From: an uncultured Lachnospiraceae bacterium
Lineage (GTDB): Bacteria > Bacillota > Clostridia > Lachnospirales > Lachnospiraceae
DNA length: 64,000 nt
NCBI GenBank assembly: GCA_902781655.1
Contig: CACZJZ010000006.1
Span: 1-64,000 of the forward strand
Direction of reading: 5' to 3'
The position numbers were made by a program, and so were the translations under genes. How positions within the stretch are numbered: the stretch's first letter is position 1; each line of letters begins with the position of its first letter. Below the pieces are notes generated by a model. It saw only the letters and a program-made list of their open reading frames with translations, ran no database searches and had not been told where the DNA came from. Shown here one piece after another: positions 4,477 to 16,230 of this stretch.

Positions 4477-6111
4477 TCAGGGCTTTCTGCCCTGACGGGA
4501 TTTTTCCGGTTGACTCTGCTTTTCTACAACATACAGAAGATCTCCCATGCGCAGGACTGTGTCGCCGGACGGGATCATGGTTTCGCCGCCCCTGCGGATG
4601 AATATGATCAGCTCGTCCTTCAGAGCAAGGTCTGTGAGGCGTTTTCCGGTCCAGTCATGAAAGGCAGTGAGGCAGACCTCGTGCATCCCGCTGTTTTCTG
4701 CGTTTCCGCCCTCCGGACCACAGAGAATCAGCTCATCGCCCTCGCGCAGCCGGGTATCGCCCTTCGGAAGGATCTGTTTTCCGGCGCGCTCAATCACCGG
4801 AAGGATAGAGTTCGGGGGTAGTGTGATGTCCGCGATGGTTTTACCGGCCCAGGGATGCTGCTCTGTGACACGGAATTTTATAAATTGTACCGGAAGATCC
4901 TCAGCGGTATCGTTGAAAGTTGCCATGACATCTTCCCGCGCGTCAATCATGTCAAGTCGGCGGGCGACCGCCGGGATCAGCGTCCCCTGGACCAGAATGG
5001 AGAACAGAACGAGAAAGAAAACCGTGTGGAACAGGTCGTAGGACAGGCCATCTGCCTGGCTGACCGCCATGATGGCAAAGGCAATGGAGGCAGCGCCGCG
5101 CATGCCGGCGAAGGATACAAACAGGATCTGGCGCAGCGGGCACCGGAAGGGGGCCAGCAGGAGAAAGACGGCGACTGGTCTGGCGGCAAAAGTCAGGAAA
5201 AGTGCAAGGAGAAGAGCGGGGCCTGCAACGGACGGGAGCCTCGACGGATACGCGAGAAGGCCGAGCATAAAGAAGAGCAGCATCTGCATCAGTCCTGTGA
5301 AACTGTGAAAGAACCGGATGCTCTCGGTTTTGTCGGGGATCGTCTGATTCCCGATCAGAATTCCTGCGATATACACGGCTAGATAACCATTTCCGTAGAG
5401 ACGACTGGTAAGGGCGTAGGTGAGCATGCCGAGTCCGAGTAGAAATGCCTCGGTGAGAACCACATCTTTGAGACGTAAAAGCCGCAGCAGACGTACGGTG
5501 GCCCAGGACATGACGACTCCGACGGCGATCCCCGCCGCAACCTGCAAAAGCAGAATCTGCGCGATGCGTCCGGCGGAGAGGCGCTCCCCCTGCATCAGAC
5601 TTAGAATCACTACGGTGAGAAGATAGGAGAACGGGTCGTTGGAGCCGCTCTCCACTTCGAGCAGAGAAGCTGTGCTGTAGCGCAGGTCCATCTTCCGGGA
5701 GCGGAGAATAGAAAAGACCGACGCTGCGTCAGTTGAGCAGATGACGGCACCCAGCAACATTCCTTCCAGCATCTCCATCCGGAGCACATACACGGCAAAT
5801 AAGCCTACCAGACCGGCGGTGAGAAAGCTGCCGAGACTGGAGAGCACGAGTGCCTTTCCCAGCACAGGTCTCGCCGCCCGGAGATTGGTCCCCAGACCGC
5901 CGTAGTAGATGATGAGCACAAGCGCCGCCGAGCATAGACTGCCAGCAAAATTATAGTTGTCAAAGGGGATTCGGAGAAGCCCGTCCGATCCGAACAGCAT
6001 ACCCAGCGCAATGAATACAAAGAGTCCGGGAACGCCGGTACGGCGGAAGATTTTCTGAAACAGGGCGCAGCAGATCAAAATGACTCCCGCGAGCAGCAGA
6101 AGATTGTCCAT
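4477..6111 (-). CDS. CPA1-type K+/H+ or Na+/H+ antiporter with two RCK-C (TrkA-C) domains
   Basis: A 544-residue cation/proton antiporter resembling NhaP2/CvrA, which trades cytoplasmic K+ or Na+ for protons. Residues 1 to about 390 are a transmembrane domain of some 12 helices, with GMLLGAVICSTDAASVFSILRS (the acidic antiporter motif) and VESGSNDPFSYLLTVVIL. The tail holds two TrkA-C-like segments: FRVTEQHPWAGKTIADITLPPNSILPVIERAGK and a shorter, more divergent one (WTGKRLTDLALKDELIIFIRRGG) that may sense a ligand and gate transport. The frame is open upstream to 6288, but the start at 6111 has AAAGGAG 7 bases before it and begins a typical N-terminal helix. The gene is transcribed away from the pxp locus. 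Confidence 0.88.
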   Translation of the reverse strand: MDNLLLLAGVILICCALFQKIFRRTGVPGLFVFIALGMLFGSDGLLRIPFDNYNFAGSLCSAALVLIIYYGGLGTNLRAARPVLGKALVLSSLGSFLTAGLVGLFAVYVLRMEMLEGMLLGAVICSTDAASVFSILRSRKMDLRYSTASLLEVESGSNDPFSYLLTVVILSLMQGERLSAGRIAQILLLQVAAGIAVGVVMSWATVRLLRLLRLKDVVLTEAFLLGLGMLTYALTSRLYGNGYLAVYIAGILIGNQTIPDKTESIRFFHSFTGLMQMLLFFMLGLLAYPSRLPSVAGPALLLALFLTFAARPVAVFLLLAPFRCPLRQILFVSFAGMRGAASIAFAIMAVSQADGLSYDLFHTVFFLVLFSILVQGTLIPAVARRLDMIDAREDVMATFNDTAEDLPVQFIKFRVTEQHPWAGKTIADITLPPNSILPVIERAGKQILPKGDTRLREGDELILCGPEGGNAENSGMHEVCLTAFHDWTGKRLTDLALKDELIIFIRRGGETMIPSGDTVLRMGDLLYVVEKQSQPEKSRQGRKP

Positions 6112-6178
6112 GAGGAACTCCTTTCGGGATGGGATGTTTCCGGCCTGTATCCGTCGATGCGTGTTCACCGCTGCATTT

Positions 6179-6187
6179 ACTATATCA
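6179..6187 (-). promoter_or_regulatory. Possible extended -10 promoter of the antiporter gene
   Basis: The minus strand reads TGATATAGT, an extended -10 box, 67 bases before the antiporter start. No good -35 box is seen at the usual spacing, so the call is tentative. Confidence 0.35.
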
Positions 6188-6223
6188 TGATTTCGGGGCT
6201 TGATATACGCTGGCAAGCGTCGG

Positions 6224-6244
6224 GCCATATGCCTGGCATATGGC
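6224..6244. promoter_or_regulatory. 21-base perfect palindrome, candidate operator
   Basis: Two 10-base arms, GCCATATGCC and GGCATATGGC, are exact reverse complements around one central T. It lies 30 bases upstream of the -35 box of the pxpB promoter and about 40 bases upstream of the antiporter -10. That position fits an activator or shared operator site. The protein that would bind is not identified; no regulator gene lies beside it. Confidence 0.55.
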
Positions 6245-6274
6245 TGGCCTATAAGTCCGAGCGCATGTCCGGCC

Positions 6275-6303
6275 TTGATTCTTTGCAAAATCTGGTCTAT
6301 ATT
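6275..6303 (+). promoter_or_regulatory. Promoter of the pxp operon
   Basis: TTGATT (6275-6280) and TATATT (6298-6303) are separated by 17 bases. Transcription would begin near 6310, leaving a leader of about 150 bases before pxpB. Confidence 0.6.
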
Positions 6304-6318
6304 TCACTGCGTAGCAAT

Positions 6319-6350
6319 GAGGCTGTTCCGGGGTCGGAGCAGCCTCTTTT
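6319..6350 (+). terminator. Terminator-like hairpin in the pxp leader (possible attenuator)
   Basis: The arms GAGGCTG (6319-6325) and CAGCCTC (6340-6346) enclose a 14-base loop and are followed by TTTT. The hairpin begins about 10 bases after the predicted transcription start and over 100 bases before pxpB, so it sits in the leader of the operon. It could reduce or regulate read-through; the T run is short. Confidence 0.5.
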
Positions 6351-6383
6351 CACAACTCCATCAGAAGAAGGAGAGAAAACGGC

Positions 6384-6461
6384 GTGGAACAGCAGGAAAA
6401 GAGAACGGTGCCACAGGCAATGGTCAGTTTGTTCAGCCTTGATCAGAGGAGGCACGCATGA
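6384..6461 (+). CDS. Possible 25-residue leader peptide of the pxp operon
   Basis: A GTG-started frame encodes VEQQEKRTVPQAMVSLFSLDQRRHA. AAGGAGAG at 6368-6375 is well placed before the GTG. The stop TGA overlaps the pxpB ATG (ATGA), so a ribosome finishing this ORF would be in place to start pxpB. Six of 25 residues are Glu or Gln, which is notable upstream of a 5-oxoproline/glutamate operon. There is no homology support; it could be chance or simple translational coupling. Confidence 0.4.
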   Translation: MEQQEKRTVPQAMVSLFSLDQRRHA

Positions 6462-7171
6462 AGATCTGCCCGTCAGGGGATCAGGGGATTTCCGTAGAAT
6501 TTGAAAATGAGATCAGTGAGGCGGTGAACGGCAAGGTGACGTCTCTCGCCGAATCGCTCGCGGCACAGGATGCCACTGGCATTCTGGAGATGGTGCCGAC
6601 GTACCGGGCACTGCTGATCCGGTATGATCCGACAGCAGTATCCTATGCGGAGCTGTGCGGGATGGTCGAGCGCGCGGCTGTTCCGGGCGACGGCAGCCTT
6701 AAGCAGAAGAGACGGATATGGCACATTCCCTGCTGCTACGGCGGTATTTATGGAGAGGACCTCGGGGGGATGGAGGCGGTCACAGGCCTTTCGCCCGAAG
6801 AGATCATCCGGATTCATACTGAGCCGGAATACAAAATCTATATGCTCGGGTTCCTGCCCGGTTTTCCCTATCTCGGCGGGCTTGATCCGCGTATCGCGGC
6901 GCCCAGACTCAAAACGCCGCGGGTGAGAATCCCGGCCGGAAGTGTCGGGATCGGTGGCAGTCAGACCGGCGTCTATCCGATCGATTCTCCGGGCGGGTGG
7001 CGTCTCATCGGCAGGACACCGGTGAGGTTCTATGATCCGGAAAGTGAGCATCCGATTCTATGTGCCGCAGGGGATTCCATTCGCTTTGTATCTATCACAC
7101 CGGATGAATATGATGCCATTGCGCGGGACGTGGAAAAGAGAGTTTACGTTCCTGAGAACGAAGTTTCTTAG
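6458..7171 (+). CDS. pxpB: 5-oxoprolinase subunit PxpB (KipI-like, allophanate hydrolase subunit 1 family)
   Basis: A 237-residue subunit of the ATP-dependent prokaryotic 5-oxoprolinase, which with PxpA and PxpC opens 5-oxo-L-proline (pyroglutamate) to L-glutamate. The family signatures are present: IPCCYGG near residue 89, GFLPGFPYLGGLDPRIAAPR near 130-149, and IPAGSVGIGGSQTGVYP followed by SPGGWRLIGRTP in the last third. AGAGGAGG 6 bases upstream supports the start at 6458. It is followed after 34 bases by pxpC, with a stem-loop spanning its stop codon. PxpB and PxpC are related to KipI and KipA of Bacillus, but here the presence of pxpA makes the oxoprolinase role the better reading. Confidence 0.93.
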   Translation: MKICPSGDQGISVEFENEISEAVNGKVTSLAESLAAQDATGILEMVPTYRALLIRYDPTAVSYAELCGMVERAAVPGDGSLKQKRRIWHIPCCYGGIYGEDLGGMEAVTGLSPEEIIRIHTEPEYKIYMLGFLPGFPYLGGLDPRIAAPRLKTPRVRIPAGSVGIGGSQTGVYPIDSPGGWRLIGRTPVRFYDPESEHPILCAAGDSIRFVSITPDEYDAIARDVEKRVYVPENEVS

Positions 7172-7191
7172 AATGACGTTCTGAGGAACGT
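7146..7191 (+). repeat. Intercistronic stem-loop between pxpB and pxpC
   Basis: ACGTTCCTGAGAACG (7146-7160) pairs with CGTTCTGAGGAACGT (7177-7191) in 14 of 15 positions, with a 16-base loop. The stem covers the last codons and stop of pxpB and ends 14 bases before pxpC. There is no T run, so it is more likely an RNA-stability or translation-tuning element than a terminator. Confidence 0.7.
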
Positions 7192-7205
7192 GGAGAAGGG
7201 ATACT

Positions 7206-8291
7206 ATGAGCATTGTTGTGGAACAGCCCGGAGCGCTGTCTCTGGTGCAGGACGCCGGGCGCTTTGGGTTTATGCAGTATGGCGTGACGCAGAGCGGCGC
7301 GATGGATACAGAGGCCTACGCGGCGGCCAATGAACTTGTCGGGAATCCGGCTGGCGCGGCGGAAATTGAGATGACCCTGATGGGCATGTCCTGTCTATTT
7401 TCCGCATTCTGTGAGTTTGCGCTCACAGGCGCGGATATGGATGCGAGGCTTGACGGCATTCCCGTTCCGCGATATCAGAGACTGACCGCTGACGCCGGGC
7501 AGAGACTGACGATGGGGATGGCTGTCTCAGGATGCAGAGCCTATCTGGCGGTGAAAGGCGGAATTGATGTGCCGGTCGTCATGGGCAGCCGGTCGACGAA
7601 TCTCCGCTGCAAAATGGGAGGCTTCGAGGGAAGGGCACTGCAGGCCGGCGATGAGCTGAAGATTGGCACACTGACGGCAGGCAGTGAGGATGGAGGAGAT
7701 GGTCCCGGACGGAACGTGGCGGTGCCTCCCCGCTATCCGTCAGAGGTCACGGTCCGCGCGGTGGCAGGCCCGCAGGAGGAGTATTTCACGGAGGCGGGGA
7801 AGAAGACCTTCTTCGAGACCTCCTACCGGGTACTTCCACAGAGCGACCGGATGGGAATGCGGCTGTCCGGGCCGAAGGTGGAGAGCTGTGGCAGCGTCGA
7901 TATTATTTCGGATGGTATTTTATTCGGTTCTGTGCAGATCACGAACGGCGGCGAGCCGATCATCATGATGGCGGATCATCAGACGACCGGCGGATATGCC
8001 AAGATCGCGACGGTCTGCTCGTTTGACCTTCCGAGACTTGCCCAGCTGAGGCCGGGAGATCAGGTCCGGTTCGAGCGGGTTTCTGTCGAGGAGGCGCAGC
8101 GTCTTCTGCTGCATCCGGAGGAGCGCAGACGCTCCGAGCGGACTATGCAGCTGCCGATCGGAAGCTTCGGACGCGGGGCGGGAACGGCATCGGGACCGGA
8201 AAGCGCGGACGACCGGGCAGGCAGTCTTCTTCACAGAAGACATAGGCGGGGATGGACGAAGGAACCCGACCGGGGATTCCGGCACACATGA
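7206..8291 (+). CDS. pxpC: 5-oxoprolinase subunit PxpC (KipA-like, allophanate hydrolase subunit 2 family)
   Basis: A 361-residue partner of PxpB in the ATP-dependent 5-oxoprolinase. The family features are the N-terminal GALSLVQDAGRFGFMQYGVTQSGAMD (residues 9-34), SGCRAYLAVKGGIDVPVVMGSRST near 109-132, and SDRMGMRLSGPKVES and GSVQITNGGEPIIMMADHQTTGGYAKIA in the second half. The last 50 residues, after LRPGDQVRFERV, are low-complexity and rich in Arg, Gly and Ser, longer than usual for the family, and may be disordered. A GGAGAAGGG precedes the ATG. It is the second gene of the operon, 29 bases before the DUF1445 gene. Confidence 0.92.
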   Translation: MSIVVEQPGALSLVQDAGRFGFMQYGVTQSGAMDTEAYAAANELVGNPAGAAEIEMTLMGMSCLFSAFCEFALTGADMDARLDGIPVPRYQRLTADAGQRLTMGMAVSGCRAYLAVKGGIDVPVVMGSRSTNLRCKMGGFEGRALQAGDELKIGTLTAGSEDGGDGPGRNVAVPPRYPSEVTVRAVAGPQEEYFTEAGKKTFFETSYRVLPQSDRMGMRLSGPKVESCGSVDIISDGILFGSVQITNGGEPIIMMADHQTTGGYAKIATVCSFDLPRLAQLRPGDQVRFERVSVEEAQRLLLHPEERRRSERTMQLPIGSFGRGAGTASGPESADDRAGSLLHRRHRRGWTKEPDRGFRHT

Positions 8292-8320
8292 GAAAGCAGT
8301 GGAATGTAGGGAGGATGGAA

Positions 8321-9106
8321 ATGAATTTTGATCATATGACACCGAAGGAAGTGCGACAGCTTATTCGCGAGGGAAAGTATACCGGGCAGACCTCCGGGAT
8401 GTGCCCCGGCTACGCGCAGGCAAATCTCGTGGTGCTGCCGAAGGAGCTGGCGTATGATTTTCTGCTCTTTGCGCAGAGAAACCCGAGGCCCTGTCCGCTG
8501 CTTGAGGTGAGCGACATGGGCAGCAGGACGCTGCACGAGATTGCGGACGGCGCGGATATCGCAAGGGATATTCCAAAGTATCGGATTTATGAAAAAGGAG
8601 AACTGACCGGGGAGTACACGGATGTCTCACAGTTCTGGAGAGATGATTTTGTGAGCTTTCTGATCGGATGCAGTTTTTCGTTTGAGGGGGACCTGCTGGC
8701 TGCGGATGTGCCGGTGAGGCAGATTGAGGAGCATCGGAATGTCCCGATGTACAACACAAATATTCCCTGCCGGTCCGCGGGTGTGTTTCATGGCAACATG
8801 GTCGTCTCGATGCGCCCGATTCCATATGAACTCGTGCCGAAGGCGGTGCTGATCACCGGGCAGATGCCGCGGGTGCACGGCGCGCCGATTCACATCGGCA
8901 ATCCGGAGTACATCGGGATCCATGACCTGGAGCACCCGGATTATGGAGAAATGGTGACGATCCGCGACGGCGAGGTGCCGGTCTTCTGGCCGTGCGGCGT
9001 GACACCGCAGAACGTGATCATGCAGTCACACCCGGATTTTGTCATCACGCATGCCCCGGGACATATGCTTATCACAGACGTGAAAAATGTGAACCTGAAG
9101 TACTGA
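8321..9106 (+). CDS. D-glutamate cyclase family protein (DUF1445, YcsI-like putative hydro-lyase)
   Basis: A 261-residue soluble protein of the YcsI/DUF1445 family, annotated in databases as putative hydro-lyase. The hallmark N-terminus is clear: TPKEVRQLIREGKYTGQTSGMCPGYAQANLVVLPKELAYDFLLFAQRNPRPCPLLEV. Further conserved blocks are NIPCRSAGVFHGNMVVSMRPI and GEVPVFWPCGVTPQNVIMQSHPDFVITHAPGHMLITD at the C-terminus. From memory of the family, the animal mitochondrial D-glutamate cyclase DGLUCY carries a related N-terminal domain, so conversion of D-glutamate to 5-oxo-D-proline is a reasonable role. GGGAGG at 8309-8314 selects the ATG at 8321 over upstream in-frame codons. It sits between pxpC and pxpA. 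Confidence 0.85.
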   Translation: MNFDHMTPKEVRQLIREGKYTGQTSGMCPGYAQANLVVLPKELAYDFLLFAQRNPRPCPLLEVSDMGSRTLHEIADGADIARDIPKYRIYEKGELTGEYTDVSQFWRDDFVSFLIGCSFSFEGDLLAADVPVRQIEEHRNVPMYNTNIPCRSAGVFHGNMVVSMRPIPYELVPKAVLITGQMPRVHGAPIHIGNPEYIGIHDLEHPDYGEMVTIRDGEVPVFWPCGVTPQNVIMQSHPDFVITHAPGHMLITDVKNVNLKY

Positions 9107-9174
9107 GTTATTCGGTGCAGAAGTGAAGCAGAGACGGAAGAGACAGATTATGGAAGAAAGGCAGGAACGCAGCG

Positions 9175-9948
9175 ATGGGAATCAGAGTGGATCTCAACTG
9201 TGATATGGGGGAGAGCTTCGGAAATTACAAAATCGGGATGGATGAGGATATTGTGCAGTACATTTCCTCGGCGAATATCGCGTGCGGATTTCATGCGTCG
9301 GATCCGCTGGTGATGGAGAAGACAATCGGACTGTGCAGACAGGCGGGCGTGGCACCCGGTGCGCATCCCGGGTTCCCGGATCTGGTCGGCTTCGGACGGC
9401 GCCAGATGAAGGTGACGATGCCGGAACTCAGGGCGATGATCATATATCAGGTCGGCGCGCTGAAGGCGTTTGCAGAGGCGGAGGGTCTTTCTCTTCAGCA
9501 CGTGAAACCACACGGCGCGATGTATAACATGGCAGGAAAGGATCCGCAGATGGCGGATGCTATCTGCGAGGGAATTGCCTCGGTCGATCCGGAACTGATT
9601 CTTCTGGGCTTGTCCGGGTCTGCCTTTGAGGGCGCGGCGGCGCGCGCCGGTCTCCGCTTCGCGCGGGAAGTGTTTGCGGACCGCGCGTATGAGGAGGACG
9701 GATCGCTCGTGGCGAGAGGAAAGGACGGCGCGATGATCACAGACGAGCAGGAGGCGATCCGCCGGGTGATCCACATGGTGAAGGATCACAAGGTGACGGC
9801 GATCACGGGCAAGGAAATAGCGGTGTCTCCGGATTCCATCTGCCTGCACGGAGATTCTCCGAAAGCGCTGCTCTTTGCGAAGACGATCCGGGAGGAGCTG
9901 ACAAGAGAGGGAATCGAGATTGCGCCGATTGCGCAGGTGATCGGGTGA
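9175..9948 (+). CDS. pxpA: 5-oxoprolinase subunit PxpA (LamB/YcsF family)
   Basis: A 257-residue LamB/YcsF-family protein, the third subunit of the 5-oxoprolinase. It shows the expected motifs from the N-terminus: VDLNCDMGESFGNYKIGMDEDIVQYISSANIACGFHASDP (residues 4-43), PGAHPGFPDLVGFGRR (about 60-75) and LQHVKPHGAMYNMAGKD (about 107-123), then SICLHGDSPKAL near the end. The conserved Asp, His and Lys residues of the proposed active site are all present. The length matches the family. The ribosome-binding site is weak. It lies between the two cyclase-like genes. Confidence 0.94.
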   Translation: MGIRVDLNCDMGESFGNYKIGMDEDIVQYISSANIACGFHASDPLVMEKTIGLCRQAGVAPGAHPGFPDLVGFGRRQMKVTMPELRAMIIYQVGALKAFAEAEGLSLQHVKPHGAMYNMAGKDPQMADAICEGIASVDPELILLGLSGSAFEGAAARAGLRFAREVFADRAYEEDGSLVARGKDGAMITDEQEAIRRVIHMVKDHKVTAITGKEIAVSPDSICLHGDSPKALLFAKTIREELTREGIEIAPIAQVIG

Positions 9949-10001
9949 CAGATCACCAAATCTGCGGAAAAGTATGGCACGGAGCTGGAGGCTTGACAAC
10001 C

Positions 10002-10877
10002 ATGGGAAAGACTGAGGACATTATTTTGCGGCATTCCGGAAGAGGTATGAATCTTCTGCGGGAGTATCTGCCGGTGGATTACTGCACGGAGGCGGCAGAG
10101 GAGATTCTCCGATGGGACAGGGGAACGATTCTTCTGACTACCGGATTTTATGTGGCGGGTTTTGCAGAGACAGACGGCCCTGCCGGGACGATTGTTCTGT
10201 CGAGAGCGCTGTCCGGACTCGGATATCACCCGGTGATCGTGACGGATGAATTCTGCAGGGGGTTCTTTGAACCGGAGAAGATTGATACCGTTTATCTGCC
10301 GATGGACGCGGGCGAGAAGGAGTGCGCCGCGCTTCTTGCGGAGCAGAAGCCGGCAGGGATGATTTCGATTGAGCGGTGTGGCATCAATACGAGAAATGAT
10401 TACGAAAATATGCGCGGGATCAGCATCGCGGAGCATACGGCGAAGGTGGATTTGCTGTTTGCGATGGCGGGGCCGGACCGCGGCACGGGCAGCGACTTCC
10501 GGATCCCGACGATCGGCGTCGGGGACGGTGGCAACGAAATCGGTATGGGATGCCTTGCCTCTGTGATCGCGGAGAAACTGTCCCTCGTGCCATGCCGTGT
10601 CAGGACAGACCGGCTGGTGATCGCGAGCGTGTCGAACTGGGGAGCCTATGGGATGGCGGAGGAGCTGGAGCACATCAGCGGCAAGCCGGTGTTTCATGAG
10701 ATCGATGGCCTTCGTCCGGCAGAGAAGGTACAGGAGAGTATCGAACGGATGGTTGCGGTGGGAAGCGTGGACGGCGTGACACATGAGCGGGTCGCCCATG
10801 TGGACGGATTTGAGGCATCTGTGGAGACGGAGATTCTCGATGCACTGACCATGCTGGTACAGCCGCAAAATTCTTGA
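10002..10877 (+). CDS. DUF4392 protein, homologue of the D-glutamate cyclase C-terminal domain
   Basis: A 291-residue protein matching DUF4392, which forms the C-terminal part of animal D-glutamate cyclase (DGLUCY). Recognisable blocks are TTGFYVAGFAETDGPAGTIVLSRALSGLGY near residues 45-74, PAGMISIERCGINTRNDYENMRG in the middle, and IPTIGVGDGGNEIGMGCL near 167-184, followed by ASVSNWGAYGMAEEL. The pattern G-D-GGNE-G-G is typical of the family. The frame opens at 9945, overlapping pxpA, but GGAGG at 9987-9991 favours the ATG at 10002. Together with the DUF1445 gene it makes a two-gene version of the animal enzyme. Confidence 0.82.
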   Translation: MGKTEDIILRHSGRGMNLLREYLPVDYCTEAAEEILRWDRGTILLTTGFYVAGFAETDGPAGTIVLSRALSGLGYHPVIVTDEFCRGFFEPEKIDTVYLPMDAGEKECAALLAEQKPAGMISIERCGINTRNDYENMRGISIAEHTAKVDLLFAMAGPDRGTGSDFRIPTIGVGDGGNEIGMGCLASVIAEKLSLVPCRVRTDRLVIASVSNWGAYGMAEELEHISGKPVFHEIDGLRPAEKVQESIERMVAVGSVDGVTHERVAHVDGFEASVETEILDALTMLVQPQNS

Positions 10878-10918
10878 CAGACGGGGAGAAAGTGTTTAGC
10901 ATATCTCTTAGCGCTTAC

Positions 10919-10973
10919 AAAGAGGTGGCGGATAGCGGGGGATATCAGCTTCGCGGTTCAGCTGCCTCTTTTT
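10919..10973 (+). terminator. Terminator after the oxoproline operon
   Basis: AAAGAGGTGGC (10919-10929) pairs with GCTGCCTCTTT (10961-10971) over 11 positions, two of them G-T, and is followed by more T. It stands between the DUF4392 gene and the aminotransferase gene. It may end the pxp transcript or attenuate read-through into the aminotransferase. Confidence 0.65.
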
Positions 10974-11026
10974 GCGCACCGGGTATTTTTTCGCGGGCGC
11001 CGCAGGGAGCGGCACGGAGGAGAAAA

Positions 11027-11878
11027 ATGAAGACATTAGGATACTACAATGGGAAAATCGGCGAGATCGATGAACTCTCCATTCCGATGAATGATCGTGT
11101 CCACTGGTTCGGAGACGGCGTGTATGATGCCGGTCCGTGCAGACACTATCACATCTTTGCCATCGATGAACATATCGACCGGTTTTTCAACAGTGCGGCA
11201 TTGATGGACATCAAAATGCCTGTGACCAAGGCCGAATTGAAAGATCTTTTGACCGGGCTGGTGAAGAAGCTGGATGACGGCGATCAGTTCGTCTATTATC
11301 AGGTCACCCGCGGCGGATATGACAACCGGCTTCACACCTTCGACGAGACCATTCCTGCGAACCTCTGGGTCATGCTGACACCTGCAAAGGCAAGCGACGG
11401 CAAGACACCGATTCACTGCATCACGGAACCGGACACCCGGTTTTATCACTGCAACGTCAAGACGCTGAATCTTCTTCCTTCCGTCATGGCGGCGCAGCAC
11501 GCAAAGAGAGCGGGCTGTGTGGAGACCATTCTGTACCGCAAGAATATGGGCAATCGTGTGACGGAGTGCGCACACAGCAACTGCCACATCATTCAGGACG
11601 GCAAGCTGTTCACCGCGCCGACAGATGAGCTGATTCTGCCCGGCATCGCGCGTGCTCATCTGATCCGGATGTGCAAGAAGCTGGGTTATGGCGTTTCTGA
11701 GACTCCCTATGATCTCGATACCCTTCGCAAGGCGGATGAGATTCTTATTACAAGCTCGAGCAAACTGTGCATGCACTGCGATGTGCTGGACGGCGAGAAG
11801 GTCGGCGGGAAGGCGCCGGAGATGCTGGAAGATCTCCGCAGCCATCTGATCGAGGAATTCCTCGAGGCAACAGAATAA
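11027..11878 (+). CDS. Class IV PLP aminotransferase, D-amino-acid aminotransferase-like
   Basis: A 283-residue fold-type IV PLP enzyme resembling D-alanine aminotransferase (Dat), which moves amino groups between D-alanine, D-glutamate and their 2-oxo acids. Visible features are LGYYNGKIGEIDELSIPMNDRVHWFGDGVYD at the N-terminus, the PLP lysine in CNVKTLNLLPSVMAAQHAKRAG (about residue 147), and RVTECAHSNCHII with the acidic residue that contacts the cofactor. The C-terminal DEILITSSSKLCMHCDVLDGEKVGGKAPE follows the Dat pattern rather than that of branched-chain enzymes. GGAGGAG 4 bases before the ATG at 11027 fixes the start. Its closeness to two D-glutamate-cyclase-type genes supports a D-glutamate link. 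IlvE or ADC lyase activity cannot be excluded. Confidence 0.85.
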   Translation: MKTLGYYNGKIGEIDELSIPMNDRVHWFGDGVYDAGPCRHYHIFAIDEHIDRFFNSAALMDIKMPVTKAELKDLLTGLVKKLDDGDQFVYYQVTRGGYDNRLHTFDETIPANLWVMLTPAKASDGKTPIHCITEPDTRFYHCNVKTLNLLPSVMAAQHAKRAGCVETILYRKNMGNRVTECAHSNCHIIQDGKLFTAPTDELILPGIARAHLIRMCKKLGYGVSETPYDLDTLRKADEILITSSSKLCMHCDVLDGEKVGGKAPEMLEDLRSHLIEEFLEATE

Positions 11879-11915
11879 GTATTCCGGCTTTTCCGGAGTA
11901 TTCAGAACAAAATGC

Positions 11916-11944
11916 AGGACTGCCGCGCAGCGGCAGTCCTTTTC
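11916..11944 (+). terminator. Terminator after the aminotransferase gene
   Basis: AGGACTGCCG and CGGCAGTCCT are perfect arms around a 5-base loop and are followed by TTTT, 37 bases after the stop codon. Confidence 0.85.
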
Positions 11945-12063
11945 TGGTATACGACGAACCAGAAGCCATGGTGCGGGCCTGCCTGCAGACGGAATTGAGC
12001 GGAGCGGATACCGGGGTCTTGTGATAGAATGAAGCCATGACTGCAGCATGCGGGGGGCGATGC

Positions 12064-13035
12064 ATGGATAGAACACTGGAAAGGTTTTACAGCGGCAGAA
12101 CGGTTCTTGTCACAGGATTCACCGGGGAGGCTGGAAGCTGGCTGATGCAGGCTCTGCTGATGCTCGGCGCAGATGTCGTCGGATTCGGCGTGAACAGGAC
12201 GGAAAAAGGCAGCAGCTTCGGCACAGGAAAAAGCCTGTTTGATCTTTCGGGGCTTACTGCACGCTCGGAGCATGACCGGACAGCACCGAAGAAGGAGGGG
12301 GCTCCGCGGTTTCATGCGGTTACGGGGAGCGTTAAGGACCTTTATCTCTGCCGGGAGACGTTCATGAAAACGGAACCGGAGATCGTTTTTCATCTCGCGC
12401 CTGGCCTTTATGGAGCAGCGTTGCTTGCAGGAAACAGCCGGAGCGCTGCCTTTCATCGCGTGGCTGGTCTTTCTGAAATGGAACCTGATTTTCCGGGGGA
12501 CCCGGTCCGGACGTATGAGGAAGCAGTTCTGGGTACGGTTCACGTCCTTGACTGTGTGCGGACGACTACGACAGAATTTGGCGGCGATACCGGCAGGAGA
12601 TGCGTACGGAGTTTTGTCTATATTGCGGGGAATGGAGCAGAGCGGGGAGAGAAAGCAGGAAGGAATGCGTTATGCTGCTCGCTGCGGGAACCCGGAATCG
12701 ATGTACCTCGCAGCCAATGCAGTGAACTCGAAACCGATGCGCGCTGCAGTGCGCTGGAGGCTGTGAAAACCTGGCGGCACTGCTACTTTGAAGGAGAGGG
12801 AGCGGCTGGCGTCTGTGCAGTCGTGGGCGGCGGCGGCAATCCACCGGCGCTCGTGAGGGCCTGTCTTGATGCCGGCATGCGTCATTATGATCATCCCGGT
12901 GAGGAAGGAACCATTACGCTGCCAGACGAAACTGCCTGGTCGGGTCAGGAGCGGTTCCTGCGGGTGAGAGGGGAACATCCGGAACGGATACCGGCAGAGA
13001 TGAGAGCGATTCTGAACGAAGTGCTGTCTGTATAG
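12064..13035 (+). CDS. Degenerate nucleotide-sugar dehydratase-like protein (extended SDR, CDP-glucose 4,6-dehydratase-like)
   Basis: A 323-residue protein of the extended short-chain dehydrogenase fold. The N-terminus LERFYSGRTVLVTGFTGEAGSWLMQALLMLGADVVGFG matches CDP-glucose 4,6-dehydratase (usual form TGHTGFKGSWL), and PEIVFHLAPG and GDPVRTYEEAVLGTVHVLDCVR follow the same order. The block that should contain the catalytic YxxxK (DPYSxSKACAE in relatives) here reads DVPRSQCSELE, so both Tyr and Lys are missing, and the later GNVIGGGDW block reads AVVGGGGN. About 25 unusual residues interrupt the middle. The protein probably lacks dehydratase activity or is decaying, although the frame is intact. 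A G-run 6 bases upstream supports the ATG at 12064. Confidence 0.65.
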   Translation: MDRTLERFYSGRTVLVTGFTGEAGSWLMQALLMLGADVVGFGVNRTEKGSSFGTGKSLFDLSGLTARSEHDRTAPKKEGAPRFHAVTGSVKDLYLCRETFMKTEPEIVFHLAPGLYGAALLAGNSRSAAFHRVAGLSEMEPDFPGDPVRTYEEAVLGTVHVLDCVRTTTTEFGGDTGRRCVRSFVYIAGNGAERGEKAGRNALCCSLREPGIDVPRSQCSELETDARCSALEAVKTWRHCYFEGEGAAGVCAVVGGGGNPPALVRACLDAGMRHYDHPGEEGTITLPDETAWSGQERFLRVRGEHPERIPAEMRAILNEVLSV

Positions 13036-13063: not shown

Positions 13064-13855
13064 ATGCTTCAGGAACTCAACAGTCCTGTTTTATATCTGA
13101 TCTGCGGTGCGATCATTCTATTTGTGGCGGTCACCTGTGTTATTTTCATGGTACGCGCGTACCGTGCCGGAAAAGCCATTGGCATGGATCCGGCCAGACT
13201 CCGCAGAACCGTAACTTCAAGCATGACTTTTTCTTTTCTGCCGAGCGTCGGCATTCTGCTCGGTGTGATTGCGCTGTCCGGCAGTCTGGGAACGCCATGG
13301 CCATGGCTGCGGCTGTCTGTGATCGGCGCGCTTCATTATGAGACGCAGGTGGCCGAAGCCGCGGCGGAGGCCGTCGGTATCGGCCGGCTTTCCGCGGAGA
13401 GCATGACGCCGCGTGCGTTCAGCACCATCGCGCTGCTGATGAGTGTCTGTATTATGTGGGGCATGGTGTTGTCTCTTTTCTTCAATAAGCGGTATACCAG
13501 CAGGCTGCAGAGCCGGGAATCCGATGAAAAAGGCCCGGAGCAGAAGAAGGGGGAGGAGAGCCGGAACAACGCCAGAAAGAAGGCAGCCGGCGCGAGTTTT
13601 GCTGACACCGCGATGACGGCGATGTTCATCGGACTGATCAGCGCCTACCTGGGCAGCTATATCGGCGGATTCGTGTCCGGTAACGGGAAATTTGCTTTCC
13701 ATGGCGATATCACCCCGATCATGGTCTGCCTGGTGTCGTGTGTGGTTATGGGACTTCTCACTGCGATAGCGGAGCGGAAGAACCAGATCTGGCTGGAAAG
13801 CTTTTCTATCGCGCTCAGTATGTTTGCAGGGATGACGGCAGCGGTGCTGCTGTAG
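13064..13855 (+). CDS. DUF5058 family membrane protein
   Basis: A 263-residue membrane protein that I recognise as DUF5058, a family without known function. Hydrophobic segments lie near residues 9-30, 49-70, 119-144, and three more after a charged linker. The linker, about 146-180, is rich in Lys, Glu and Arg and is probably cytoplasmic. Conserved-looking stretches are MTFSFLPSVGILLGVIALSGSLGTPWPWLRLSVIGALHYET and FIGLISAYLGSYIGGF. It is followed by a second membrane protein and an M20 peptidase, all on the same strand, so the three may form a uptake-and-hydrolysis unit. This is inference from order only. Confidence 0.7.
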   Translation: MLQELNSPVLYLICGAIILFVAVTCVIFMVRAYRAGKAIGMDPARLRRTVTSSMTFSFLPSVGILLGVIALSGSLGTPWPWLRLSVIGALHYETQVAEAAAEAVGIGRLSAESMTPRAFSTIALLMSVCIMWGMVLSLFFNKRYTSRLQSRESDEKGPEQKKGEESRNNARKKAAGASFADTAMTAMFIGLISAYLGSYIGGFVSGNGKFAFHGDITPIMVCLVSCVVMGLLTAIAERKNQIWLESFSIALSMFAGMTAAVLL

Positions 13856-13969
13856 GGTACAGTGCGGCAGATCGGGCAAACAGCAGTGGAACAATCAGAA
13901 TACCGGAACAATCAGAATGCGCGGAAAACAAGCCGGAGAAGCTTGCGGAAGTAAGCGGGAAGAGGCGGC

Positions 13970-14659
13970 ATGAAAGAGATTGAAAACGGAGTGAATCGGG
14001 AACAGTATCTGGCAAAATACACACGCGGCACGCATATTCTCGGACGGCTATGCACAGCGGTGACTCTGGCTGCCCTTCTTGGTGCGCCGTTTCTCATCGG
14101 CGCATATCTTGGGGCGCTGCCGGACCTGGGCGCGGCGGCGAAGGCGTTTGTCTCCGTGGGACTGGTGTGGACTGTGTCGAGTTTTGCCGAGTTCCTGATC
14201 TACACGCCGATGCTCGGCGCGGGCGGCGGGTATCTCGCCTTTATCACAGGAAATCTCATCAATATGAAGATTCCGTGTGCTATGAATGCGCGGGAAATTG
14301 CAGGGACAAAGGCGGGGACGCCGGAGAACGAGATTGTTTCTACTCTTTCTATCGCTGCATCAAGTCTTGTCACGATTGTTGTGCTGGCGGCCGGTGTGGC
14401 GGCGCTGGTCCCGCTGCAGCCGGTTCTGCAGAGCAGGACGCTGGCACCGGCGTTTGACAATGTCGTACCAGCCCTGTTTGGTGCCATGTCTTATCAGTAT
14501 TTCCGGAGAAACCTGAAGCTGGCAGCCATGCCGATGCTGCTCATGAGTGTGATTTTTGTCGTGGCTCCTTCGCTCACAAGTCAGACAAGTCTTCTGATTC
14601 TGCCATCCGGCGCTGTGGCGATCGGTCTGGCTTATCTGGGATATCGGAGAAAGCACTGA
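13970..14659 (+). CDS. Membrane protein of unknown function, probable partner of the DUF5058 protein
   Basis: A 229-residue protein with about six hydrophobic segments. I do not recognise the family with confidence. A conspicuous stretch is YTPMLGAGGGYLAFITGNLINMKIPCAMNAREIAGTKAGTPENEI near residues 82-126, glycine-rich and partly polar between two helices, which might line a transport path. A second repeats-like block, DNVVPALFGAMSYQYF, lies near 162-177. GGGAAGAGGCGGC precedes the ATG. It lies 114 bases after the DUF5058 gene and 119 bases before a peptidase, consistent with a two-component transporter. Confidence 0.6.
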   Translation: MKEIENGVNREQYLAKYTRGTHILGRLCTAVTLAALLGAPFLIGAYLGALPDLGAAAKAFVSVGLVWTVSSFAEFLIYTPMLGAGGGYLAFITGNLINMKIPCAMNAREIAGTKAGTPENEIVSTLSIAASSLVTIVVLAAGVAALVPLQPVLQSRTLAPAFDNVVPALFGAMSYQYFRRNLKLAAMPMLLMSVIFVVAPSLTSQTSLLILPSGAVAIGLAYLGYRRKH

Positions 14660-14778
14660 CGTAGCAAAATGTATCTGGCTGGCAGTTGGTTGAGAAGATG
14701 TCTGGATGCTGCAATTCTGGTCCGGGGCAAAGCTCTCTGCTTCCTCAAGGCGCTGTATGCGCGGAATGAGGTGTATGC

Positions 14779-16230
14779 ATGATCGCAGGAAAGATCATTC
14801 TGGGAATTCTTCTGCTTTTACTGGTGCTTTTACTGATCGCTCTGGTGCGGACGCTTTGTATGCCGGCGAAGGTTTCAACCTATGAGCCGGACGATTCCGC
14901 GGAGACGGGCGCGCGGGCGGAACACTACGCCCAGATTCTCTCAAAAATGGTGCAATATGAGACGGTATCCTATCCGGAGCGGCATGATGTGCCGAAGATC
15001 GAAGGATTCCACCGACTTCTCCGGCAGCTGTTTCCCCGGGTGTTCGAGGAACTGGAGGTCACGGATATTGACGGCAACCTTCTGCTGTTCTGGAAAGGGA
15101 CAAAACACGACAAGCCGCTTGTGCTGATGAGCCACCAGGATGTCGTGCCCGCGGAGGGCAACTGGGTGCACGCACCCTTTTCCGGCGATATTGCGGACGG
15201 CAAGGTCTGGGGCAGAGGCGCATCGGATACAAAATGCTCGGTCATGGGATTTTTTCAGGCGGTGGAGGAGATGCTTGAGGTGGGCATCGTGCCGGGTCAG
15301 GATGTCTATCTGTCCTCCTCCTGTACGGAGGAGTGGGCCGGAGACGGCTGCCCGAAGCTTGTCGCGGAACTGGAGCGGCGCGGCGTCCGGCCGTACCTTG
15401 TCTGCGATGAAGGCGGCGGCATCATCACGGATCCGATCGGTGGAATTCACGGGAATTTTGCCATGATCGGCGTATTTGAGAAGGGGAAAGGAGACGTGAC
15501 GTTCACGGCACGCAGCAGCGGCGGACACGCGAGTGCGCCTGCGGCCGGCAGTCCGATCGCGCGGCTCGCGGATTTTGTGCACGATGTGGAACACCATCCG
15601 CCGTTCCGGAGGAAGATGTCTAGGGAAGTGCAGGCCATGTTCCGGACACTGGCACCGTACGGGACGTTCGGTCTGCGTCTGGTATTCGGCAATCTGTGGC
15701 TTTTCAAGCCTCTGCTTGTCCGGCTGATGCCACGGATTTCCGCGCAGGCGGGCGCCATGCTGCAGACGACGATCGCGTTTACGATGAGTTCCGGCTCTGA
15801 CGCCTGCAATGTGATGCCGCAGGAGGCATCGGTCGGTGCCAATATGCGTTTCATCCCGCATCAGGGGATGGATGAGAGCCTTGCCATCATCCGGAATCGG
15901 GCGGCAAAGTACGGGCTGGAGATGTCGGTGCAGCATGCAAACGATTATTCAACGCCGGTTGATATCGACGGCGCGGCGTTTCGTCTTGTGACGGACACAG
16001 TGGAAAGGACATTTCCGGGGCTTGCCGGCAGTCCGTATGTCATGACCGGCGCGACGGATGCCTATCATTATCAGCGTATCTGCGATGCGGTTGTGCGCTT
16101 TGCGCCGGTCATCTATGGACCGGAGCAGATGAAGGGGATGCACGGCGTAAACGAAAATATTGAATACCGCTGTCTGCCGGGATGTGTCGATTTTTACAAG
16201 AATCTGATCGACGCGGTGGGGAAGCTGTGA
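14779..16230 (+). CDS. Membrane-anchored M20 family metallopeptidase (PM20D1/carboxypeptidase-like)
   Basis: A 483-residue di-zinc hydrolase of family M20, related to carboxypeptidases and to PM20D1-type N-acyl amino acid hydrolases. Residues 5-27 form one hydrophobic helix, a likely membrane anchor. Metal and catalytic residues are visible: SHQDVVPAEGNWVHAPF (His and Asp, near residue 120), WGRGASDTKCSV (bridging Asp), SSCTEEWAGDGCPK (catalytic Glu-Glu) and GMHGVNENIEYRC near the C-terminus (final His). A dimerisation domain occupies about 225-370. The substrate is probably a peptide or N-acyl amino acid. The position after two membrane proteins suggests it processes what they import. Confidence 0.88.
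   Translation: MIAGKIILGILLLLLVLLLIALVRTLCMPAKVSTYEPDDSAETGARAEHYAQILSKMVQYETVSYPERHDVPKIEGFHRLLRQLFPRVFEELEVTDIDGNLLLFWKGTKHDKPLVLMSHQDVVPAEGNWVHAPFSGDIADGKVWGRGASDTKCSVMGFFQAVEEMLEVGIVPGQDVYLSSSCTEEWAGDGCPKLVAELERRGVRPYLVCDEGGGIITDPIGGIHGNFAMIGVFEKGKGDVTFTARSSGGHASAPAAGSPIARLADFVHDVEHHPPFRRKMSREVQAMFRTLAPYGTFGLRLVFGNLWLFKPLLVRLMPRISAQAGAMLQTTIAFTMSSGSDACNVMPQEASVGANMRFIPHQGMDESLAIIRNRAAKYGLEMSVQHANDYSTPVDIDGAAFRLVTDTVERTFPGLAGSPYVMTGATDAYHYQRICDAVVRFAPVIYGPEQMKGMHGVNENIEYRCLPGCVDFYKNLIDAVGKL

What the first reader, a model, noticed from the sequence alone, without database searches (positions are those of the whole stretch)
6458..11878. Split D-glutamate cyclase genes inside a 5-oxoprolinase operon, with a D-amino-acid aminotransferase
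Seen: pxpB, pxpC, DUF1445 (8321), pxpA, DUF4392 (10002), then a Dat-like class IV aminotransferase, all on one strand with short gaps. Known: PxpABC hydrolyses 5-oxo-L-proline to L-glutamate with ATP, and the animal D-glutamate cyclase DGLUCY joins a DUF1445-like and a DUF4392 domain. Inferred: the two genes give a two-protein cyclase turning D-glutamate into 5-oxo-D-proline, and the aminotransferase links it to D-alanine. A 5-oxoproline racemase, or a PxpABC accepting the D form, would be needed to close the route; neither is visible.
Basis: partly seen in the sequence, partly recalled or inferred. Interest (0 to 1): 0.75.

Follow-up and report, generated by a model that had tools for sequence, protein, structure and literature searches.

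The report
Six-gene D-amino-acid to L-glutamate module
A gut-type bacterium carries a gene set, found in shuffled order in unrelated bacteria, that probably turns the mirror-image amino acids of cell walls into ordinary glutamate by closing, flipping and reopening a small ring; the flipping enzyme would be new.

Summary
In detail: pxpB, pxpC, DUF1445, pxpA and DUF4392 are intact and clustered, with a Dat-like aminotransferase downstream. Here a promoter-like site and terminator-like hairpin separate the aminotransferase. The grouping still looks real: all six genes recur, reordered, in other Bacillota and, more loosely, in an Eggerthellaceae genome; spirochaetes have them with PxpB-PxpC fused; the D-Ala- and D-Glu-using Pseudoalteromonas sp. 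CF6-2 has four of them. Dat sat at 5 of 7 pxp loci with DUF4392, 0 of 29 with DUF1445 only, 0 of 28 with neither.

The 'two-protein cyclase' is not supported: DUF4392, with all six metal ligands, occurs without DUF1445 (11 of 43 genomes), DUF1445 without DUF4392 (32 of 64); 63 of 64 DUF1445 genomes have PxpA. I propose sequential steps: D-Ala to D-Glu (Dat); D-Glu to 5-oxo-D-proline (DUF4392); racemization to 5-oxo-L-proline (DUF1445, two invariant cysteines); ATP-driven opening to L-Glu (PxpABC). The racemase step is inference, and mammalian DGLUCY data speak against it.

The parts
6458..7171 (+). pxpB, 5-oxoprolinase subunit (CT_C_D)
   Evidence: PF02682 255 bits; TIGR00370 209 > 146
7206..8291 (+). 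pxpC, 5-oxoprolinase subunit (CT_A_B)
   Evidence: PF02626 330 bits; TIGR00724 320 > 230, but PxpC equivalog NF045499 267 < 500
8321..9106 (+). DUF1445 / UPF0317 protein; proposed 5-oxoproline racemase (inference)
   Evidence: PF07286 231 bits; solved relatives 3DB9 and 2PIF, named only UPF0317 proteins; C117, C225, R165, H186 and H244 invariant in 42 aligned proteins
9175..9948 (+). pxpA, 5-oxoprolinase subunit (LamB/YcsF)
   Evidence: PF03746 347 bits; subfamily NF003814 375 > 226, equivalog NF003813 335 < 392
10002..10877 (+). DUF4392 (GLUCM-like C) protein; proposed Mn2+-dependent D-glutamate cyclase
   Evidence: PF14336 228 bits; TON_0340 structures E about 1e-17; ligands E56, D58, E124, D175, E179, D268 invariant in 50 of 50
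10874..10902 (+). promoter-like site TTGACA-17-TAGCAT before the aminotransferase
   Evidence: 10 of 12 match
10919..10971 (+). terminator-like hairpin with U tract between DUF4392 and aminotransferase genes
   Evidence: the 161-nt stretch 10870-11030 folds with z -2.88, 0 of 200 shuffles as stable; similar hairpin in close relative L112
11027..11878 (+). D-amino-acid-aminotransferase-like class IV protein (Dat)
   Evidence: PF01063 139 bits; TIGR01121 197 < 277; D-AAT structures 1DAA/3DAA E 1e-38; Y33, R101, H103, K145, E180 invariant in 20
11916..11940 (.). bidirectional terminator-like hairpin after the aminotransferase
   Evidence: 11 pairs, T tail on both strands

Best explanation
The genes form a stereo-inverting D-amino-acid catabolic module. 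(1) Dat moves the amino group of D-alanine (or another D-amino acid) to 2-oxoglutarate, giving pyruvate and D-glutamate; D-glutamate from cell-wall turnover enters here too. (2) DUF4392, a di-Mn2+ enzyme, closes D-glutamate to 5-oxo-D-proline. (3) DUF1445 racemizes 5-oxo-D-proline to 5-oxo-L-proline, perhaps with two cysteines as acid and base. (4) PxpABC opens 5-oxo-L-proline to L-glutamate with ATP, pulling the route forward. Net: D-Ala + 2-oxoglutarate + ATP gives pyruvate + L-Glu. Shown here: gene identity, conserved residues, and the repeated and rearranged clustering. Established elsewhere: Dat and PxpABC chemistry, and D-Glu cyclase activity of the mouse two-domain protein. Inferred: step 2 by the bacterial DUF4392 (about 0.75), D-Ala as donor (about 0.7), step 3 by DUF1445 (about 0.45). 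In this window Dat probably has its own promoter. With no glutamate racemase found, Dat may also supply D-Glu for the wall.
For: Module recurrence and order shuffling: 13 of 80 named DUF4392 loci have all six genes and 23 of 80 have Dat (the 80 were kept for likeness to the window protein, so this is not a prevalence); also L063, L065, L066, L076 and the genus loci L108, L109, L111, L112 (three of these are the same genomes as named loci). Dat is tightly packed elsewhere, e.g. Dorea gaps of 11, 0, 1, 4, -1 nt. Dat at pxp loci: 5 of 7 with DUF4392, 0 of 29 DUF1445-only, 0 of 28 PxpA-only (Fisher 3e-6, kinship not corrected). The L063 cluster holds a DUF4392 far from the main Dat clade, so the set was probably assembled more than once (long branch). 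D-alanine context: Na+:Ala symporter beside Dat, alanine-racemase-type gene after PxpA in four spirochaete loci, D-serine ammonia-lyase beside Dat in L189. Pseudoalteromonas CF6-2 has DUF1445-PxpA-DUF4392-aminotransferase at gaps of 6, -13 and 2 nt and grows on D-Ala and on D-Glu as sole nitrogen source (PMC6962226, passages). DUF1445 goes with PxpA (63 of 64) but not always with DUF4392. If PxpABC opened the D form, DUF4392 plus PxpABC would be a futile cycle, so an inversion should lie between them, and DUF1445 is the remaining constant gene (logic).
Against: Purified mouse DGLUCY, which contains the DUF1445 domain, was reported to yield 5-oxo-D-proline, judged against D and L standards, and humans excrete mainly the D form (PMC5339696); a working racemase domain should racemize it. 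In the window a terminator-like hairpin precedes Dat. Dat misses the TIGR01121 cut-off. No AgcS, Alr or DsdA relative was found in this window (tblastn), and an AgcS-like gene also lies 3 kb from pxpA in 1 of 28 PxpA-only controls (L155). 27 of 80 loci pair DUF1445 and DUF4392 without pxp nearby. 7 of 11 DUF4392-only genomes lack PxpA. TON_0340 was described as a weak phosphatase (PMC5132392). As I recall, DgcN-DgcA is needed for D-Glu use in CF6-2 (Yu 2023, not held), so its DUF4392 cluster did not suffice there. 4 of 9 complete-module genomes keep MurI, and many genus members without the module lack it.
Confidence: 0.48

Rival explanations
1. One reading: DUF1445 and DUF4392 are two subunits of one D-glutamate cyclase, as in the fused animal enzyme; PxpABC merely sits in the same operon or accepts the D form.
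For: Animal protein joins DUF1445 and DUF4392 (PMC5132392, PMC5339696); adjacent pairs in many genomes (24 of 48 named loci that hold both are within 150 nt and on one strand); strong co-occurrence (32 of 398 genomes hold both; Fisher 2e-20, kinship not corrected).
Against: DUF1445 without DUF4392 in 32 of 64 genomes, with pxp genes at its locus in 29 of 32; DUF4392 without DUF1445 in 11 of 43 genomes (two of the 11 under 90% complete); the TON_0340 paper says DUF1445 homologues are not found in archaea. PxpABC on the D form would be a futile cycle.
Confidence: 0.17
2. DUF1445 is not a racemase but another 5-oxoproline-handling factor (e.g. an accessory that lets PxpABC use 5-oxo-D-proline, or a separate lactam enzyme); the stereochemical fate of D-Glu is settled by another enzyme outside the cluster.
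For: DUF1445 tracks PxpA (63 of 64) and often sits with an NRAMP-type gene (25 of 32 DUF1445-only loci); the mouse two-domain protein gives the D product.
Against: No other candidate inverting enzyme recurred beside the clusters read; no Asp/Glu racemase family (PF01177) match in this genome; opening the D form would regenerate D-Glu.
Confidence: 0.22
3. The module runs the other way: it supplies D-glutamate (and D-alanine) for the cell wall from 5-oxoproline in genomes that lost MurI.
For: No TIGR00067 or PF01177 match in this genome, while 35 of 40 genomes sampled from the family match TIGR00067, 34 over the cut-off; the window Dat is the only D-type class IV aminotransferase found, the other being IlvE.
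Against: PxpABC is ATP-driven towards L-Glu and would oppose it; 4 of 9 complete-module genomes keep MurI; Dat alone from D-Ala would suffice; DUF4392 also neighbours MurL/MurD-type genes, where free D-Glu should not be needed.
Confidence: 0.07
4. The aminotransferase is an unrelated neighbour; only pxpABC-DUF1445-DUF4392 is a unit.
For: Promoter-like site and terminator-like hairpin before it in this window and a similar hairpin in L112.
Against: Dat is clustered with the other genes in several phyla and orders, inside the operon elsewhere, and absent from 60 of 60 control loci.
Confidence: 0.05

Closest known systems
Animal D-glutamate cyclase DGLUCY (9030617O03Rik, C14orf159)
   Same: Has the same two domains, DUF1445 and DUF4392; D-Glu to 5-oxo-D-proline shown for the mouse protein (PMC5339696).
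   Different: Separate genes here, joined to pxpABC and Dat; product would be carried on to L-Glu instead of being excreted. No sequence comparison with the animal protein was made here.
PxpABC 5-oxoprolinase operons with DUF1445 (B. subtilis ycsI type; that ycsI is DUF1445 is recalled)
   Same: pxpABC plus DUF1445 is a common arrangement (pxp genes at 29 of 32 DUF1445-only loci).
   Different: Those lack DUF4392 and Dat and often carry an NRAMP-type gene, the family of the Mn2+ importer YcsG (PMC10448178, passages); 0 of 29 Dat-type loci had it.
DgcN-DgcA D-glutamate pathway (details recalled from Yu et al. 2023, not held; called an irreversible racemization pathway in PMC12363236, passages)
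   Same: Same logic: mask the amine as an amide, invert, unmask; net irreversible D-Glu to L-Glu.
   Different: Uses N-acetylation and other protein families; here the mask is the internal lactam and ATP is spent on ring opening.
TON_0340 (Thermococcus DUF4392, 4DWZ/4FC5/5GL4)
   Same: Six acidic ligands of the metal site, all conserved here.
   Different: Reported as a low-activity phosphatase; no D-Glu assay is mentioned in the parts of the paper read (1-3 of 4).
Split DGLUCY homologues in gut genomes (PMC11580864, table row GLUCM_HUMAN: 0 and 6)
   Same: The split itself was already counted there, if as I take it the columns are full-length and split (column heads not seen).
   Different: I saw no discussion of pxp, Dat or a pathway for it in the passages returned.

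Membership tests
PxpABC 5-oxoprolinase | all three subunits clustered and above curated cut-offs | tested here: inconclusive
   PxpB passes its equivalog model; PxpA passes two subfamily models but not three equivalog ones; PxpC passes TIGR00724 but not NF045499 (267/500)
PxpABC 5-oxoprolinase | ATP-dependent opening of 5-oxo-L-proline | not testable with these tools
   needs an assay
DUF4392 / GLUCM-like C (D-glutamate cyclase catalytic domain) | PF14336 above cut-off and six acidic metal ligands | tested here: met
   228/27.9 bits; E56, D58, E124, D175, E179, D268 in 50 of 50
DUF4392 / GLUCM-like C (D-glutamate cyclase catalytic domain) | D-glutamate cyclase activity | not testable with these tools
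   no bacterial assay seen in the listings of the paper searches made (lists capped)
DGLUCY-type two-domain enzyme | DUF1445 and DUF4392 in one chain or one obligate complex | tested here: not met
   separate genes, not even adjacent here; each occurs without the other (32 of 64, 11 of 43)
UPF0317 / DUF1445 | PF07286 and NF003969 above cut-off | tested here: met
   231/25 and 420/324 bits
cofactor-free two-thiol racemase (mechanistic class, recalled) | two invariant cysteines | tested here: met
   C117 and C225 in 42 of 42; in A2 26 of 27 for C117, the exception being a truncated frame
cofactor-free two-thiol racemase (mechanistic class, recalled) | the two thiols face each other across a pocket | not testable with these tools
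   no coordinates at hand; structure tool switched off
D-amino-acid transaminase (DAT) | TIGR01121 above cut-off | tested here: not met
   197 < 277; best-scoring family all the same; the four other cluster Dats scanned (CF6-2, L063, L193, L190) also fall below it, 208-246 bits
D-amino-acid transaminase (DAT) | PLP lysine and the R-x-H carboxylate pair (residue roles recalled) | tested here: met
   K145, R101, H103 invariant in 20 of 20; alignment to 3DAA
glutamate racemase MurI / Asp-Glu racemase family | a member encoded in the genome | tested here: not met
   no TIGR00067 or PF01177 match, genome 99.5% complete
DgcN-DgcA pathway | dgcN and dgcA genes in the genome | not tested
   not searched

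The most novel reading that the evidence does not exclude
DUF1445/UPF0317 is the first 5-oxoproline racemase. With DUF4392, PxpABC and Dat it makes an ATP-driven, one-way D-to-L glutamate inversion through the lactam, by which bacteria that feed on cell walls or amino acids ferment D-alanine and D-glutamate without amino-acid racemases or oxidases. Animals would have inherited the two middle genes as a fusion.
Probability: 0.38. Interest if true: 0.82.

Novelty: new variant of a known kind. Interest (0 to 1): 0.64.

Why it matters
UPF0317 proteins have solved structures that carry no functional name, and NCBIfam calls them 'putative hydro-lyase'. The cluster gives a concrete, cheap test of what they do, gives bacterial relatives of the animal D-glutamate cyclase a pathway, and offers a route by which gut, rumen and marine bacteria could recover peptidoglycan D-alanine and D-glutamate. 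5-Oxo-D-proline appears in human urine (PMC5339696), so gut bacteria able to use it would be of wider interest.

Tried and rejected
Two-protein cyclase: rejected as a general reading by independent occurrence. Strict MurI replacement: rejected; MurI is over the cut-off in 4 of 9 complete-module genomes; 5 of 9 lack it against 9 of 60 control genomes (p 0.014, kinship not corrected; data), but in the window's genus only 13 of 31 have it over the cut-off (17 of 31 with any match), with or without the module. Riboswitch in the Dat leader: no Rfam match up to E 1 in 6000-12100. Remote relatives of DUF1445 by profile against the PDB: only 3DB9, 2PIF and one chance-level hit; for DUF4392 only TON_0340 above noise, no racemase. 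Structure prediction and fold search: not obtained. Read only in passages: PMC13274462 (no D-form terms found), PMC8788868, PMC10448178, PMC6962226, PMC12363236. Niehaus 2017, Yu 2022 and Yu 2023 are not held; what I say of the Yu papers is recalled. Whether the dat gene needed for D-Ala use in CF6-2 (Yu 2022, title seen in a reference list) is the one in this cluster is unknown.

Rows left out or limited. Of 54 PxpA-only genomes I fetched 28 as controls. Of 43 DUF4392 genomes I read neighbourhoods in 40 (window included; G166, G241, G332 not fetched), and second copies in G340 (C16) and G267 (C142) were not read. One of the 43 (G241) is below the family cut-off. Three of the 64 DUF1445 matches are remnants (G037, G051, G176), so L127 counts as a pxp locus with hardly any DUF1445. 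L067 and L110 are cut by contig ends and were left out of the Dat counts; L084, counted as lacking Dat, has DUF4392 0.3 kb from a contig end. Control loci on short contigs (L138, L171, L174, L180, under 9 kb) were kept in. Three loci were dropped as duplicates of the same genome (L065, L066, L108) in the distance and tree analyses, and L192 also in the tree.


Full report
WHAT IS THERE. The window holds pxpB (6458-7171), pxpC (7206-8291), DUF1445 (8321-9106), pxpA (9175-9948), DUF4392 (10002-10877) and a class IV aminotransferase (11027-11878), all + strand. Pfam confirms every family. NCBIfam cut-offs are passed by PxpB, DUF1445 and PxpA (two subfamily models, not the three equivalog ones), but not by the PxpC equivalog (NF045499 267/500) or the aminotransferase (TIGR01121 197/277), although D-amino-acid transaminase is its best family and D-AAT crystal structures are its best PDB relatives (E 1e-38). 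Between DUF4392 and the aminotransferase lie a promoter-like site (10 of 12) and a long hairpin with a U tract. The close relative L112 has a similar hairpin in the same gap. So in this lineage the aminotransferase is probably transcribed on its own. No Rfam family matches 6000-12100 up to E 1.

WHOSE GENOME. A genus mate (G451 contig C13, 169930 bases) matches uncultured Lachnospiraceae RUG227 (contig ONEK01000002.1, same length), so the window is probably from a Lachnospiraceae-type bacterium.

ACTIVE SITES. DUF4392 aligns to TON_0340, whose metal site is six acidic residues, absolutely conserved in that paper's alignment (PMC5132392, parts 1-3 of 4 read). The counterparts E56, D58, E124, D175, E179 and D268 are invariant in 50 of 50 proteins of A4. 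In A1 the first five are invariant in 26 of 26 and D268 in 25 of 26, the exception (L112) having a divergent, perhaps frameshifted, C-terminus. DUF1445 aligns to 3DB9 and 2PIF, named only as UPF0317 proteins. In 42 aligned proteins C117, C225, R165, H186 and H244 are invariant; C58 is kept in 37 of 42. The aminotransferase family keeps Y33, R101, H103, K145 and E180 in 20 of 20 (roles recalled from the Bacillus YM-1 enzyme).

DISTRIBUTION. In 398 genomes of the phylum: DUF4392 in 43 (42 over the cut-off), DUF1445 in 64 (three of them remnants), PxpA in 121. Both DUFs in 32; DUF1445 only in 32; DUF4392 only in 11, of which two (G200, G393) are under 90% complete. PxpA is present in 31 of 32, 32 of 32 and 4 of 11 of these groups. 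So DUF1445 is nearly always with PxpA (63 of 64), DUF4392 less so. B. subtilis rings for DUF1445 and PxpA but not DUF4392 among the 14 control genomes. This is not what an obligate two-subunit cyclase predicts. It fits two separate enzymes, with DUF1445 acting next to PxpABC.

THE SIX-GENE MODULE. I read neighbourhoods in 40 of the 43 DUF4392 genomes (window included) plus five genus mates. DUF4392 lies at the pxp locus in 8 of the 40. The other loci are DUF1445-DUF4392 pairs elsewhere (8 loci) or DUF4392 without either. Of the 7 pxp+DUF4392 loci with a whole pxp set in view, 5 carry Dat (window, L063, L065, L066, L076). Two from one family do not (L084, whose DUF4392 is 0.3 kb from a contig end, and L086). 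Dat was at 0 of 32 DUF1445-only loci (29 of which hold pxp genes) and 0 of 28 PxpA-only loci; 5/7 against 0/57 gives Fisher p 3e-6 without kinship correction. In the genus sample 6 of 31 have DUF4392. Dat lies near it in 5 of these 6 (in G451 3 kb away on the other strand); the sixth (G457) has no Dat match, and its DUF4392 contig is only 4 kb. In 80 named loci, chosen by likeness to the window protein, 23 carry Dat, 13 carry all six genes, 25 carry some pxp gene (21 of these with Dat), 27 carry DUF1445 and DUF4392 without pxp, and 26 carry DUF4392 alone. Orders differ: Dat-B-C-1445-A-4392 (Dorea, Lachnospiraceae, Peptococcaceae), 4392-Dat-B-C-1445-A (Schwartzia), BC-1445-Dat-4392-A in Treponema and a Spirochaetaceae genome (a PxpB-PxpC fusion: both CT domains in one 557-aa protein of L190; L191 and L194 by length only), and a looser, divergent arrangement spread over 9 kb in Eggerthellaceae L186. 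L183, labelled Thermoflexaceae (Chloroflexota), also has all six; I did not test that label. Spacing is operon-like, e.g. 11, 0, 1, 4, -1 nt in Dorea phocaeensis. A tree of 120 DUF4392 proteins needs 9 changes of the Dat label, at least 7 forced by well-supported branches. The L063 protein, also beside Dat and pxp, sits among distant DUF4392s, though on a long branch. Pairwise distances of the module proteins correlate (r 0.36 to 0.84), which kinship alone can also give.

D-ALANINE AND CELL-WALL CONTEXT. A Na+:alanine symporter stands beside Dat in L108, L109, L111, L187 (cut by the contig end) and L193, and beside PxpA in L076. Against this, an AgcS-like gene also lies 3 kb from pxpA in one of 28 PxpA-only controls (L155). 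An alanine-racemase-type gene follows PxpA in L190, L191, L192 and L194; the L192 protein passes alr TIGR00492 (353/168), though a VanT-type serine-racemase model scores higher without reaching its own cut-off (410/460). D-serine ammonia-lyase is beside Dat in L189 and near the module in L188, and this window's own genome has one on contig C12. Divergent DUF4392 genes lie beside gamma-glutamyltranspeptidase in L078, L090, L095 and L097 and a few genes away in L085. In L198, L223 and L230 DUF4392 is followed directly by MurL-like and MurD-like genes. Only the L198 MurL-like protein (272 bits with NF041275, cut-off 700) and the L189 MurD-like protein (296/212) were scanned; the others are tblastn matches. 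In the MurL wall pathway L-Glu is epimerized after ligation (PMC8788868, passages), so free D-Glu should not be needed and would only have to be disposed of.

AN INDEPENDENT ORGANISM WITH A PHENOTYPE. Pseudoalteromonas sp. CF6-2 carries, on a large plasmid, putative hydro-lyase (DUF1445), PxpA, glutamate cyclase domain protein (DUF4392) and aminotransferase IV with gaps of 6, -13 and 2 nt; P. donghaensis and Pseudoalteromonas sp. THAF3 have the same order. I opened 4 of the 51 plasmid records with a DUF4392 match; the fourth, Sinorhizobium chiapasense, has DUF4392 beside a threonine/serine dehydratase and no pxp or DUF1445 annotated in the stretch. The CF6-2 proteins are only 52, 35, 35 and 30% identical to the window's, and no pxpB or pxpC is annotated in that stretch. 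The strain digests peptidoglycan and grows on D-Ala and on D-Glu as sole nitrogen source (PMC6962226, passages). This is a correlation: as I recall, Yu et al. 2023 found DgcN-DgcA needed for D-Glu use in this strain, and Yu et al. 2022 found a D-Ala aminotransferase needed for D-Ala use; neither paper is held, and I do not know which dat gene it was.

MECHANISM. D-Ala + 2-oxoglutarate to pyruvate + D-Glu (Dat); D-Glu to 5-oxo-D-proline (DUF4392); 5-oxo-D-proline to 5-oxo-L-proline (DUF1445, inferred); 5-oxo-L-proline + ATP to L-Glu (PxpABC). The inversion should happen between DUF4392 and PxpABC: if PxpABC opened the D form, the pair would only burn ATP. DUF1445 is the other constant gene, follows PxpA, and has two invariant cysteines, the usual acid-base pair of cofactor-free racemases (recalled). 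The strongest contrary fact is that the purified mouse enzyme, which includes a DUF1445 domain, was reported to make 5-oxo-D-proline, compared with D and L standards (PMC5339696, Results, Discussion and figure legend). The animal domain could have lost the activity; I could not check its residues.

GLUTAMATE RACEMASE. This genome has no TIGR00067 or PF01177 match, while 35 of 40 genomes sampled from its family match TIGR00067, 34 over the cut-off. In its genus, however, only 13 of 31 (many incomplete) have it over the cut-off, with or without the module, so the loss is not special to module genomes. The second class IV aminotransferase found here is IlvE, so the window's Dat is the only visible source of wall D-Glu, unless MurL exists in the part not sampled (none in the 470 kb looked at). 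Of 9 complete-module genomes, 4 have MurI over the cut-off (G462, G318, G361, G396), so the module is not simply a MurI substitute.

NOVELTY. A split of DGLUCY in gut genomes was counted before (PMC11580864, table row with 0 and 6, read as full-length and split; column heads not seen). pxpABC with ycsI in one operon is known (PMC10448178, passages). In the held library no paper contains 'pyroglutamate racemase', '5-oxoproline racemase', 'oxoproline epimerase' or 'pyroglutamate epimerase'; two records (two versions of one paper) hold both 'D-glutamate cyclase' and '5-oxoprolinase'; none holds 'D-amino acid aminotransferase' with '5-oxoprolinase' and 'operon'. Subscription papers are mostly not covered. 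I file it as a new variant of a known kind: an amide-masked, one-way D-to-L glutamate inversion like DgcN-DgcA, built from other proteins.

Noticed in passing
L198:3237-6831, L223:9971-13670, L230:9938-13621: DUF4392 directly followed by MurL-like and MurD-like genes in records labelled Bacillota, Omnitrophota and Rokuibacteriota: a link between D-Glu disposal and the MurI-free wall pathway, outside the taxa listed in the passages seen of PMC8788868.
   Followed up: partly
L078, L085, L090, L095, L097: A divergent DUF4392 group lies beside (L085: near) gamma-glutamyltranspeptidase; in L095 a DctM-type transporter and an AstE/AspA-like gene lie beyond it: perhaps use of gamma-linked D-Glu peptides. 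A related gene also abuts pxpA in the PxpA-only locus L162.
   Followed up: no
L123-L154: NRAMP-type genes in 25 of 32 DUF1445-only loci (one representative scanned: PF01566 72.7 bits) but in 0 of 29 Dat-type loci; a Mn2+ or 5-oxoproline link is open.
   Followed up: partly
L112:5308-6165 (-): DUF4392 of the close relative G442 has a divergent C-terminus that looks frameshifted; assembly error or decay.
   Followed up: no
window 12064-13032: 323-aa frame that matches an NAD epimerase / CDP-glucose dehydratase only over its first ~110 residues; perhaps a decayed gene.
   Followed up: no
window 13064-16230: DUF5058 protein, a 229-aa protein without NCBIfam match and an M20 peptidase follow the module; DUF5058 and M20 are conserved beside it in G442 (L112). 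Possibly dipeptide use.
   Followed up: no
L066:4885-8259: Phage terminase subunits and a portal gene abut the module in G269, so the cluster sits at a prophage edge there.
   Followed up: no
L184, L188, L194, L199: L-serine dehydratase-type genes lie near the module in four loci (one pair scanned, in L108 of the same genome as L184).
   Followed up: no
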